Part shown: positions 4,323 to 8,612 of the stretch, piece by piece
Layout of the letters: each line of letters opens with the position of its first letter
How positions within the stretch are numbered: the stretch's first letter is position 1
Source: Auricularia sp. M13
Taxonomy: Eukaryota > Basidiomycota > Agaricomycetes > Auriculariales > Auriculariaceae
NCBI GenBank assembly: GCA_037042915.1
Contig: CM073202.1
Span: forward strand, 1,488,001-1,552,000
Direction: 5' to 3'
Length of the DNA: 64,000 bases
Translations under genes and position numbers: made by a program
Notes under the pieces: generated by a model
The model's input: only the letters and a program-made list of their open reading frames with translations
Told to the model about the DNA's origin: nothing
Database searches by the model: none

Positions 4323-5156
4323 TCATGATGAGAATCCAGCAAGTGGATCGGTGATAGCTTCGTTGAGAAGGGCCGCGGCGAGCTGACGTTGCTCGCTGTC
4401 GGCAATGAGAGAGAGATCCAGCTTCTCTCCGTCCAGAATGAGATCACGGATGTCTTCGTCTGACATGGTGGAGTCATTCTCTGGGTAATATGGCGCTCGA
4501 CCAGCATGTATCTCCCAGACGGTCGCCCCTAGAGAGTATAAATCGTCTCTGAATGTGGTTGCGCGCCGACTCGTCGCGTAGTCAAGCAGAGAGGGGCTTG
4601 TCCAGGGGATAGAGAACTCGGACTGAATGTCCATATCGTCCTCGACAAACCTGGACGTGCCGAAGTCACAGAAACGAATGAGTCCGTCGGGGCATACAAG
4701 AAGATTCGAGAGTTTGATGTCTCCGTGTACAATACCGAGGCGGTGAAGTTCTGTCACCAGATGTATGAGACGCCGAACGATTCCAGCTTTATCCAGGCCC
4801 GCTGAGGCAGGCGTGACTGACTGGCACAGAGGCATAAACATGCCCAGAGGCTGATCTGGAAAGAGAACAAGAGATAGCGGCCGCACAGCTGTGTGTCGCG
4901 CAGCTTTCGACATGGTCCAGTCGCGGACTGCCGTGTATGGCCCGTGCTGTATCTTCAGCACTAGCTTATCGTTCCACTGATAGATCGTGGCGTTGCCGTG
5001 TTTTTGAATGATGTTGGAGGGAAGGAGCTCCTTGGTGATACGAGAAACATCGATCCCACAGTCGAAGTCTAGGTCTGGCATTGGTAATTTGTTTTCCTGC
5101 TCCACGACGTTCCCTGCCTCGGCCGCCATTGACTCTGCTGCAACTCGTATGAGCAA
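4323..5156 (-). CDS. Small Ser/Thr protein kinase-like protein
   Basis: Intronless frame of 277 residues. A kinase fold is supported by the ATP-site lysine in KLVLKIQHG, the catalytic loop HGDIKLSNLL (about residue 143) and the magnesium loop CDFGTSR (about residue 164). After these come DDLYSLGATVWEI, as in subdomain IX, and a helical C-lobe. The usual HRD is HGD, so it is a non-RD kinase. The glycine-rich loop is degenerate (KHGNATIYQW), and the APE motif is replaced near WTSPSLLDYA. It may be active, because Lys, catalytic Asp, Asn and DFG are all kept. Basidiomycetes carry many such short orphan kinases with unknown substrates. Confidence 0.75.
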   Translation of the reverse strand: MLIRVAAESMAAEAGNVVEQENKLPMPDLDFDCGIDVSRITKELLPSNIIQKHGNATIYQWNDKLVLKIQHGPYTAVRDWTMSKAARHTAVRPLSLVLFPDQPLGMFMPLCQSVTPASAGLDKAGIVRRLIHLVTELHRLGIVHGDIKLSNLLVCPDGLIRFCDFGTSRFVEDDMDIQSEFSIPWTSPSLLDYATSRRATTFRDDLYSLGATVWEIHAGRAPYYPENDSTMSDEDIRDLILDGEKLDLSLIADSEQRQLAAALLNEAITDPLAGFSS

Positions 5157-5460
5157 GAGTATCGAGTTAATTGCAGACCAGATACCAAAGTGTTATAGGG
5201 GTTTTGGAGGGTTGCTCTGTTGGGAATGCACGTGGAGAAAGAGCAAGTTGAAGTCGCGGTTTCACTCTCCGCGCCGCCCACCAACATGTACGACACCGAG
5301 CTTGCAATGGCCAGAGGATTTTTACCGCATTGAGTTCTCCTTATATTACAAATACATTGAATAAGAGTACAGGATTTACACGAGTGCACTGAACAGGCGC
5401 CTTGGAACTACAGAGCGAAGAGCAGTTCAAGAGCAGTTGGCGTCCTGTGTGGGACAATTA
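5157..5460. other. Spacer upstream of the small kinase
   Basis: No recognisable feature. It probably holds the promoter and leader of the minus-strand kinase gene and the 3' region of the uncertain frame that follows. Confidence 0.4.
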
Positions 5461-5997: not shown

Positions 5998-8612
5998 CTA
6001 ATGCTCCCCGTAGATGCTATCTAACACACCATTCATGCGCAGTATGCCCTTCGTCCAATGCTCATTCCCGGCGATGAAGCCCTTCCGCACCACCTTGCCC
6101 CGCTGTACCACCTTCCCTTCCGCCTCGAGCTTCACGTATATCCCCTCTCTCGGCCCATCGTAGAACCTAGACGGATCGGAGGCCATGCGCGCGAGCTCAC
6201 CTTCCGACGGCATCTCCCCGCGGTGCACAACCGGTACGAGCTCGATGCCAGTGTCCCGCAAGATGTCCTCAAGCACCTCGCGACTGGCGAAGGAGCGCTC
6301 CGCGCGGTCGTACAGGTCGAAGGCAATGAAGAGGGCGGGCAAGCGCGCGTATGGTATTGAGTGCGTCGCGGCCAGCCACTCGCCGTAGAGGATGTAGCGC
6401 TCGGGGTACTGCGCGTCGCGCCCGAGAATGCGGTGCAGTGCCTCACGATGCCGCGTCGTCCATGCGCCGAGCTTGCGGAACTGTTCGTGCGAGGATGGGT
6501 TGACGTAGTGCGAGCGGTTTTGTACGAGGACGTTATTGCCGCTGGCATCGAGCGAGAAGCCCATGTTCGCGCCGTCAATCTTCTCCGTAATGACGGCGCG
6601 TGCATGAGCCGGAGATTTAGGAAGTGCCTGGACGATGTCGTCGTCCGTTGCGGCGCCGAGGTCGATCAGGTGAGGCGTGCGCGGGAATTTGACAATTCCG
6701 GCACTGGAAGGACACAACCTGCGGACGAGGTCGTCGGCGGCCGCAAACTCTTCACGGTGAGAATCGCGCTGAAGCCATCGCTAAGAGCAGGCGGGACGAA
6801 CTGCTCCTCCATCTGCTTGACGGCTGCGCGTACACGCCCACCGGGCGGAAGAGTCGGATGGTCCGGACGCGCCTGCGCACGCGATGTGCACAGTCCCACC
6901 GGATAGTCGAACCAGACGCACACCGCGCTGATCGCGCGGTCCGCAAGCTTGAGGAACCACCGCCGGTCCGCGTCGCTGGTGTTGCAGCGGTCGAGGATGA
7001 TCTTCTTCCTCGCGCGGCCCACGGCGTCCTCGACCTTGGCGCGCGACCCGATCTCGTCCTGCGATATCCACGTCCACTTGTCCGGCTCGCGCTTCGCGAC
7101 GGACTGCGCAAACCAGGACTTGCCGGCGCCCGGAAGCCCGACGAGGACGAGCATGTCGCATTTATCTGCGCTAAAGTCGCCCTGCACCTCGAGCGGACAC
7201 GGCGGCGGCTCGTCGGGCGCGCGCGGGAGGAGCGACTGCCGCTTCCAGAGCGTGCTGCACCACTTCTGCACGAACGCCTCCTGCTGCTTCGTCTCGACGC
7301 TGCCAGGGCGCATGGTGCGCAACTTCTCAATGGCGACGCTGCTCTCCAGCGTGGGACATGAACCATGAAAGACGGGACTGAAGCCGAACGCCGCGAGGTA
7401 GCATGCTGCGACGGTGCCAGCACGGCCTTTGCCCCCGCCGCAATGGACGAGAATGGGCAGGTTGCTCGGGTCGGCGAAGAGGCGCAGGATGAGGTCCATC
7501 TGCTCAATCGTGGGTGGCTGATAGTTCGGAATAGGAAGGAAGGTATGCCCAACGCGCCCGCTGCGGAACCAGGTGGGGTCCAAGGGAGTCTCTTCGGTCA
7601 GGGTCAGGACGTGCCTGATCCCCAGTAGCGGAGAGCCGAGGAGCGCGATGTCGTCTGCGTCGCGCGGCGTCGACATGAGCGCAAAGTGGAACGGGACGAG
7701 CCAGCGGAAGAACCGCGGGAGTCGCGACCAGCCCTTGTTCGTCTCGAGCGAATGCGCGGACGAGGCGAGAGGGACGTAAAGGCGCTGCGTCGAGTCTACA
7801 CAACGCGAGGGCGAGGCGACATCGTCATCAGCGTAAACCTGTGATAGCATGGCGCGGACGTGATCAGGCCAGGGACGCAATAGCACGGAATACAAATCTT
7901 CGGGGAGAGCAAGCATTTCCTCCTCCAGGAAGACATGGCCCCATTCGGTATGCTGAGTGCAAATGAGCATTCGAGATCGACAGTGCTTTGTGATTTTCTC
8001 GTCGCCGCCCAGCGATAGCACCTGGCCATAGGCAAGCATTGCGAGTTTCCACTTCTGCTGGAGGCAGGCAACATCTCCGAGACGCACAAAGCCTCGCTCT
8101 GAATGCGGATACCGATTGCAAGCCAGACTCGCCATCTCGTAGGCTTTTGCCGCATTGTTTTCGAGCTGGTAGCCAAAGCCGACATGGTCAAGGAACTCGA
8201 GTGAAGGCTGGGCTGGAAATTGGTCGGGCAAGAGGGTGTCGAAACCACGCTGCGAGCCGTTGTCATCGAATGCGGAGAGCTGTACGTAGAACGAGCGGAA
8301 TGGGAGGTCAAGTCGTTTCCGGACGAGTTGACCCGCATTCCATACAAAGAGAAGCCAGTACGAGCTGTCACGACCGCAGATTCCGACAGGAAGGATGTGC
8401 TGCACATCGAGGTTGCCGCAAAGGCGTCGGAGCAACGCCAATTTTGTGCGCCCAAGTTCGAGCAACTCTGCTGCAGTAAATAATTCGAGCTGGAACGGGC
8501 CTGCGCGCTTTGCGCTGCCAGCTAGTACGGGTGATTCGAGCGCGACGTATACGAAGCCGTCAATGTCCGGTCCGGCCACGGCGGCACGATCCTCGGCGAG
8601 CTTGAACTCCAT
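5998..8612 (-). CDS. Multidomain RNA repair protein: TPR-like, dual-specificity phosphatase, polynucleotide kinase, RNA ligase
   Basis: One protein of about 870 residues that appears able to heal and seal RNA ends. Residues 1-130 are a unique N-terminal region. About 140-205 are TPR-like helices. About 300-460 form a phosphatase with the CX5R signature in VHCGGGKGRAGT (Cys391, Arg397). About 487-605 form a P-loop kinase (GLPGAGKS near 492, then DRCNT and RPDHPTLPP, as in polynucleotide kinases). About 630-870 are an Rnl2-like RNA ligase: motif I EKIDGAN with the lysine that takes AMP, NRSHYV, YILYGEW, REGIYVK and VVRKGF. The ATG at 8612 is chosen because a TATA box lies 64 bp upstream, although the frame stays open to 8870. 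The frame breaks by one base at 6745-6747, between VKS of the kinase part and AAADDLVRR of the ligase part; one added base restores continuity. It resembles the fungal RNA-repair fusions called Swiss-army-knife proteins. Domain calls are firm; the biological role is inferred. Confidence 0.85.

What the first reader, a model, noticed from the sequence alone, without database searches (positions are those of the whole stretch)
5998..8612. Single-polypeptide RNA end-healing and sealing machine
One protein combines TPR-like helices, a CX5R phosphatase, a P-loop polynucleotide kinase and an Rnl2-type RNA ligase with all nucleotidyltransferase motifs. The order (phosphatase, kinase, ligase) matches the order of steps needed to clean and rejoin broken RNA. 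Here the phosphatase is of the tyrosine/dual-specificity type, not a HAD or calcineurin-type end-healing enzyme. Fungal multi-domain RNA-repair fusions are known in outline, but the substrate, and whether they answer tRNA-cutting toxins or oxidative damage, is to my knowledge open. The N-terminal ~130 residues match nothing I know.
Basis: partly seen in the sequence, partly recalled or inferred. Interest (0 to 1): 0.82.

Follow-up and report, generated by a model that had tools for sequence, protein, structure and literature searches.

The report
Mushroom RNA-repair protein with a dead domain
This mushroom gene encodes a known but untested type of all-in-one RNA repair protein predicted to clean and rejoin broken RNA ends; in this mushroom's relatives one of its four enzyme parts looks switched off, and the gene as sequenced is broken in the middle.

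Summary
On the minus strand, 8612 to 5998 holds, in order: an N-terminal 2H-fold domain, TPR-like helices, a DUSP23/VHZ-like cysteine phosphatase, a PNKP-like 5'-kinase and a minimal RNA ligase. The closest listed relative is Auricularia subglabra (76% identity). The reading frame changes once between kinase and ligase. Pfam already calls two of the parts "Swiss Army Knife" (SAK); 117 of 120 listed relatives carry phosphatase, kinase and ligase.

Corrections and additions. (1) The "unknown" N-terminus is a 2H cyclic-phosphodiesterase domain whose two HxT motifs are lost. The window and its four closest relatives (three named Auriculariales) form one clade and all have lost them. Erosion recurs in other lineages, while phosphatase, kinase and ligase catalytic residues do not vary in that set. 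(2) The phosphatase has Asn in place of the usual loop Asp, but keeps the remote Glu that VHZ uses as main acid. In 177 SAK phosphatases scored, 130 have Asn+Glu, 43 Asp without Glu, 1 both, 3 unscorable. (3) The ligase resembles Naegleria RNA ligase; it fails the Rnl2 cut-off. (4) The genome also has Trl1, Tpt1 and RtcB-family genes, so tRNA splicing probably does not need this protein. Activity and substrate are untested.

The parts
8238..8612 (-). 2H phosphoesterase domain (2H-SAK), residues 1-125; motif 1 reads QLEL and motif 2 YVQL instead of HxTx, so predicted catalytically dead
   Evidence: Pfam PF22547 13.2 bits in the window (under the cut-off of 27), E 1e-5 in A. subglabra and 9e-24 in Coprinopsis; motif columns; model strands at residues 41-43 and 108-111
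7839..8207 (-). TPR-like helical region, residues about 136-258
   Evidence: helices in the AlphaFold2 model, pLDDT mostly above 90; sub-threshold TPR hits in relatives
7263..7718 (-). PTP-SAK cysteine phosphatase, residues 299-450; HC391GGGKGR397AG, Asn363 at the loop-acid position, Glu440 in GSVET
6753..7163 (-). P-loop 5'-polynucleotide kinase, residues 484-620; GLPGAGK498S, D519, lid R-x3-R-x2-HPT
6668..6780 (-). overlap of the two open frames; homology leaves frame 1 and enters frame 2 inside this stretch with no residue of the relatives missing (break of the reading frame)
   Evidence: relatives' proteins read through here
6031..6696 (-). minimal ATP-dependent RNA ligase (nucleotidyltransferase domain only): motif I EKIDGAN, VQNRSHYVN, III YGEW, IIIa FIAFDLYD, IV EGIYVK, V RGKVVR (motif labels recalled)
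   Evidence: PF09414 6e-34; model pLDDT 83; best fold match Naegleria RNA ligase; motif counts
5998..6000 (-). stop codon of the ligase frame

Best explanation
The gene encodes a Swiss Army Knife-family RNA repair protein. In most relatives a 2H domain would open 2',3'-cyclic phosphate ends, a VHZ-like cysteine phosphatase would remove the remaining 2'- or 3'-phosphate, a PNKP-like kinase would phosphorylate the 5'-OH, and a minimal ligase would seal 3'-OH to 5'-phosphate, leaving a normal bond with no 2'-phosphate scar. In this lineage the 2H active site is gone while the domain is kept. The machine would therefore start from ends already opened, probably by another cyclic phosphodiesterase such as Trl1's CPD domain, or use the 2H domain only to bind RNA. 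Shown: domain order, catalytic residues, loss of HxT, one copy of the ligase part in the genome, and presence of Trl1, Tpt1 and RtcB-family genes. Inferred: every catalytic step, order of action and the RNA substrate. The copy as sequenced is frame-broken before the ligase; the even conservation on both sides suggests a sequence error or a very recent mutation.
For: Pfam matches. 120 listed relatives, most near 860 aa; 117 with phosphatase, kinase and ligase domains. Phosphatase Cys and Arg, kinase K, D and lid R in 120 of 120, ligase Lys in 119 of 119 with a letter. 2H motifs intact in 94, eroded in 23, unscorable in 3 of 120 relatives; window eroded; window plus P0003-P0006 one clade, SH-aLRT 100, all eroded. 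Models pLDDT 92.4 and 83.0 with DUSP23, PNKP and Naegleria ligase matches. Own genome holds Trl1 ligase, kinase and CPD domains, the CPD with two HVT motifs read by eye, Tpt1 and RtcB-family pieces. After the break the ligase is 85.9% identical to A. subglabra, against 83.3% for phosphatase and for kinase.
Against: In ten paper searches I found no member of this architecture with a tested activity, so function rests on homology. The frame break means this copy, taken literally, has no ligase. Eroded 2H motifs may be compensated by other residues. The fold searches shown did not test the 2H domain (no 2H structure in the 50 rows). The DSP could act on something other than RNA ends.
Confidence: 0.72

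Rival explanations
1. The gene is a recent pseudogene (or phosphatase-kinase only) in this strain: the frame change is real and the ligase is not made.
For: Two frames with no acceptable intron; no Met before motif I Lys in the ligase frame; the ligase part is found once in the genome.
Against: No other stop or frame break over 2.6 kb; the ligase part is as conserved as phosphatase and kinase; its motifs are intact.
Confidence: 0.25
2. The phosphatase is not a 2'/3'-end phosphatase but an RNA 5'-phosphatase of the DUSP11/Mce1 kind, feeding 5'-monophosphate ends to the ligase.
For: The usual loop Asp is Asn in 119 of 120 relatives; PMC9038691 (passages) lists Mce1, baculovirus RNA 5'-phosphatase and DUSP11 as PTPs lacking the WPD motif.
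Against: The remote Glu that VHZ uses as main acid is present in 120 of 120 relatives and in the window, so an acid is not missing; DUSP23 is the nearest structure.
Confidence: 0.12
3. It is the tRNA-splicing or HAC1-type splicing ligase of this fungus.
For: Same set of activities as Trl1 (healing plus sealing).
Against: Trl1 ligase, kinase and CPD domains and a Tpt1 are in the same genome.
Confidence: 0.05
4. The 2H domain still works, with other residues doing the job of the lost HxT motifs.
For: The N-terminal domain is modelled at high confidence.
Against: Both His are lost in the window, and the five proteins of the clade have different letters at motif 1 (QLEL, HIEL, RIEL, SLEL, ILEL).
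Confidence: 0.08

Closest known systems
Swiss Army Knife RNA repair proteins (Pfam 2H-SAK PF22547, PTP-SAK PF22784; source recalled as Burroughs and Aravind 2016, NAR, not held)
   Same: 2H-SAK and PTP-SAK domains by profile in relatives, followed by kinase and ligase
   Different: 2H active site lost in the window and its four closest relatives; I could not read whether this was already described
Fungal tRNA ligase Trl1
   Same: Healing and sealing on one chain; 2H-type phosphodiesterase and P-loop kinase
   Different: Trl1 is ligase-kinase-CPD, its CPD leaves a 2'-phosphate (PMC3400036, passages) that Tpt1 removes (recalled), and no PTP-type phosphatase is recalled in it; this protein has the reverse order and its own phosphatase
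Naegleria gruberi RNA ligase
   Same: Nearest solved fold; KxD motif I (K170, D172 in entry titles)
   Different: Naegleria enzyme is a separate nick-sealing ligase; 14-19% identity in its listed alignments, TM-score about 0.5
DUSP23/VHZ phosphatase
   Different: Asp65 of VHZ faces Asn here; here it lies in a chain with RNA repair domains
Mammalian PNKP kinase and kinases of Rhizopus azygosporus and Lichtheimia corymbifera (9d8a, 9drz)
   Same: Kinase domain
   Different: PNKP has a HAD phosphatase (recalled); the two fungal chains are 161-176 residues, kinase alone
Bacterial Pnkp1-Rnl-Hen1 and T4 Pnkp/Rnl1 systems
   Same: Functional logic: phosphatase, kinase, ligase
   Different: T4 phosphatase is DxDxT type and ligase a separate protein (PMC3400036, passages); the bacterial system is a complex of three proteins (PMC4411300, start of abstract in search listings only)

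Membership tests
Swiss Army Knife (SAK) family | PTP-SAK domain above Pfam cut-off | tested here: met
   174 bits against 27
Swiss Army Knife (SAK) family | P-loop kinase and PF09414 ligase following the phosphatase | tested here: met
   117 of 120 relatives; but in two frames in this sequence
Swiss Army Knife (SAK) family | 2H-SAK domain above Pfam cut-off | tested here: inconclusive
   window 13.2 bits against 27; A. subglabra 26.1, Exidia 24.2, both just under; Coprinopsis 84.6; own-genome search with the family gave 0 matches but also rang in no control
2H phosphoesterase (catalytic) | two HxT/S motifs (recalled definition) | tested here: not met
   QLEL and YVQL in the window
Cysteine phosphatase (PTP/DSP) | CX5R loop | tested here: met
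   HCGGGKGRAG
Cysteine phosphatase (PTP/DSP) | loop Asp general acid | tested here: not met
   Asn in the window and in 119 of 120 relatives; remote VHZ-type Glu present
Rnl2 family (TIGR02307) | score above curated cut-off | tested here: not met
   18.9 bits against 197
ATP-dependent RNA ligase (PF09414) | profile match and motifs I, III, IIIa, IV, V | tested here: met
   118 bits against 27; motifs
PNKP (TIGR01663 equivalog) | score above curated cut-off for the whole phosphatase-kinase | tested here: not met
   43.4 bits against 502.8; only the kinase part matches
RNA repair activity | phosphatase, kinase and ligase activity on cleaved RNA | not testable with these tools
   needs enzyme assays
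Trl1 tRNA ligase | T4 Rnl1-like ligase, tRNA_lig_kinase and CPD domains | tested here: not met
   none of PF09511, PF08303, PF08302 listed for the window protein up to E 1; they are in another gene

The most novel reading that the evidence does not exclude
SAK phosphatases have divided between them the two general acids that VHZ holds together. One type, with named members in mushrooms, Aureobasidium and a bdelloid rotifer, would use only the remote Glu (Asn in the loop). A second type, with Ectocarpus and many unnamed metagenome proteins, would use only the loop Asp. Within the first type the cyclic-phosphodiesterase domain has been switched off repeatedly, in every sampled member of the Auriculariales clade. 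The Auriculariales machine would then be a repair ligase blind to 2',3'-cyclic phosphates that takes over ends pre-opened by another enzyme, or repairs a different class of break.
Probability: 0.35. Interest if true: 0.62.

Novelty: new variant of a known kind. Interest (0 to 1): 0.5.

Why it matters
Listed relatives come from dozens of mushroom genera, yet ten paper searches gave no tested function. The pattern of which active site decays (2H) and which do not (phosphatase, kinase, ligase) predicts which RNA ends the protein must handle, and the acid swap gives a two-residue test of the phosphatase. In this genome it sits beside Trl1, Tpt1 and RtcB-family genes, so it offers a concrete entry to whether fungi repair toxin- or stress-cut RNA with a dedicated pathway.

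Tried and rejected
Intron across the break: 19 GT..AG combinations examined, each drops residues that relatives keep. RNA 5'-triphosphatase reading: weakened after finding the VHZ-type Glu. Prokaryotic origin of the whole fusion: of 564 confirmed bacterial relatives of the ligase, 80 loci were kept; 0 of 80 have a PNK or PTP motif in the ligase frame, 1 of 80 a PNK-like motif and 0 of 80 a PTP motif in a nearby frame. These are regex tests on cut loci, so absence is not proof. The first patterns for the phosphatase loop in the wider set were too strict and were replaced after reading sequences; counts given are, rechecked. In that set 52 of 109 proteins have no HC-X5-R and were not scored (many are kinase-ligase only or fragments), and the set was drawn by similarity to one protein, P0238. 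One of the 43 Asp rows (P0349) has Asp at the Glu column in a poor stretch of alignment. No tree was made of the two phosphatase types. Fold search for the N-terminal domain: no 2H structure among the 50 rows shown, because phosphatase and kinase fill the list; the domain's identity rests on Pfam profiles of relatives and on alignment. PF22547 over the own genome gave nothing, but rang in no control either. PF22784 over the own genome gave 8 matches, the window best (E 3e-51), the other seven E 1e-13 or weaker, not followed up. Papers: 10 searches gave no paper on this protein in their listings; the 2016 paper is not held.

Full report
What is there. The gene runs on the minus strand from ATG at 8612 to the stop at 6000-5998. 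It lies in a 52-Mb, 14-contig genome, and the ligase part is found there once by protein search. Its best relative among 120 listed (364 passed E 1e-10 of 7,996 scored) is from Auricularia subglabra, 76% identity; the next named ones are Exidia glandulosa and 'Auriculariales sp. MPI-PUGE-AT-0066'. Auricularia and Exidia belong to the order Auriculariales. The window is therefore probably an Auricularia-like mushroom (inference).

Domains. Pfam gives PTP-SAK at residues 299-448 (2e-51), AAA_33 (4e-13) and RNA_ligase (6e-34), with a sub-threshold 2H-SAK match (13.2 bits against 27). In Coprinopsis the 2H-SAK match reaches 9e-24 and covers residues 11-124; in A. subglabra and Exidia it lies just under the cut-off. 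By the table, 117 of 120 relatives carry phosphatase, kinase and ligase entries; P0016, P0018 and P0096 lack the ligase entry. NCBIfam matches PNKP in the kinase part (E 1.5e-11, far under the equivalog cut-off) and Rnl2 weakly in the ligase (18.9 bits against 197).

Dead 2H domain. HxT motif 1 reads QLEL and motif 2 YVQL in the window. Of 120 relatives, 94 have both HxT/S motifs, 23 lack at least one of the four residues, and 3 have a gap at motif 1 and were not scored. On a tree built from phosphatase, kinase and ligase columns (window N-terminal piece only), the window groups with P0003-P0006 (A. subglabra, Exidia, the Auriculariales isolate and an unnamed metagenome protein; SH-aLRT 100), and all five are eroded. 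The label needs at least 10 changes over the tree, 6 forced by starred branches. This was a quick tree with the simple model; 43 of 118 inner branches are open and the program warned of long branches joining at P0100 and P0108. Catalytic residues of the other domains do not erode in this set: phosphatase Cys and Arg 120 of 120, kinase Lys, Asp and lid Arg 120 of 120, ligase Lys 119 of 119 with a letter. The 2H and TPR parts evolve faster in general, also between proteins with intact 2H motifs (40% and 39% against 56-65% for the other domains between P0071 and P0100), so speed alone is no sign of decay.

Acid swap in the phosphatase. In the alignment of A. subglabra with VHZ (4erc), VHZ Asp65 faces Asn and VHZ Glu134 faces the Glu of RPGSIET. 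PMC9038691 (passages only) says that in VHZ Asp65 is subservient to Glu134. I aligned the phosphatase region of the 120 relatives and of the 57 of 109 wider relatives that show an HC-X5-R loop. Of 177, 130 have Asn with Glu, 43 have Asp without Glu, 1 has both (P0039), and 3 have a gap at the loop position. The named Asn+Glu members are mushrooms, Aureobasidium and the bdelloid rotifer Didymodactylos; others are unnamed. The Asp type includes Ectocarpus and unnamed metagenome proteins. The two types also differ in the loop (mostly CGGG[KV]GR against C.GG.GR). I read this as VHZ's two acids divided between two types. The chemistry is inferred.

The break. Frame 1 ends at 6668 and frame 2 opens at 6780. 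Homology crosses from one to the other with no residue of the relatives missing, which is what a frame change gives and a new intron does not. No GT..AG pair joins the frames without deleting residues that relatives keep (19 examined). A like scan of the Trl1 locus gave 12 combinations, 3 with a GTACGT donor, one of them a 53-base candidate ending in TAG. The ligase shows no drop in identity (85.9% to A. subglabra, against 83.3% in phosphatase and in kinase). I favour a sequence error or very recent mutation, but this is not settled. If the sequence is right, this copy cannot seal RNA.

Setting. The same genome has Trl1 ligase, kinase and CPD domains side by side, with two HVT motifs in the CPD part. 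It also has Tpt1 pieces, three RtcB-family pieces and a second PF09414 ligase on another contig. tRNA splicing is therefore probably provided for, and this protein is a separate pathway. A Trl1-type phosphodiesterase could supply opened ends; that is a hypothesis.

Spread. Ligase relatives occur in Phytophthora, Aureobasidium and rotifers (Adineta, Didymodactylos). Chains with 2H-SAK, PTP-SAK, AAA_33 and RNA_ligase domains occur in unnamed proteins such as P0247 and P0254. In bacteria no fused kinase or phosphatase motif was seen in 80 of 80 kept ligase loci (of 564 confirmed). PMC11258130 (passages) reports that bdelloid RNA-ligase genes rise on fungal attack and proposes a response to ribotoxins. 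Whether those genes are SAK proteins I did not test.

Known or new. Two parts of the architecture are named Swiss Army Knife in Pfam, so the architecture is not new. My ten paper searches listed no paper on this protein, but I read only passages of four papers, and the 2016 source paper was not readable here. Hence: new variant of a known kind.

Noticed in passing
G000 contig C4 about 4375919-4377147 (L098-L100): An RtcB-family ligase gene in three matching pieces (E 6e-34, 6e-14, 2e-8) on a long contig of this mushroom; fungi are usually said (recalled) to rely on Trl1 and lack RtcB.
   Followed up: partly
G000 contig C11 491430-491990 (L012 1078-2229 minus): A second, separate PF09414 RNA ligase frame of 383 aa with KLHGTN at motif I; no solved relative by sequence at E 0.01.
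   Followed up: partly
G000 contig C7 528258-528824 (L010): Trl1 gene with a likely 53-base intron between ligase and kinase parts, used here as a control for splice signals.
   Followed up: yes
window 4323-5192 minus: Open frame resembling a protein kinase (HGDIKLSNLL, DFGTS, read by eye), lying downstream of the repair gene.
   Followed up: no
PDB 9d8a and 9drz: Nearest single-domain fungal kinases were solved with GDP bound, which hints that the SAK kinase may use GTP.
   Followed up: no
G000 contig C10 1030458-1030985 (L015) and 763530-763820 (L017): Further Tpt1-like matches with in-frame stops on the window's own contig, perhaps decayed copies or intron-split genes.
   Followed up: no
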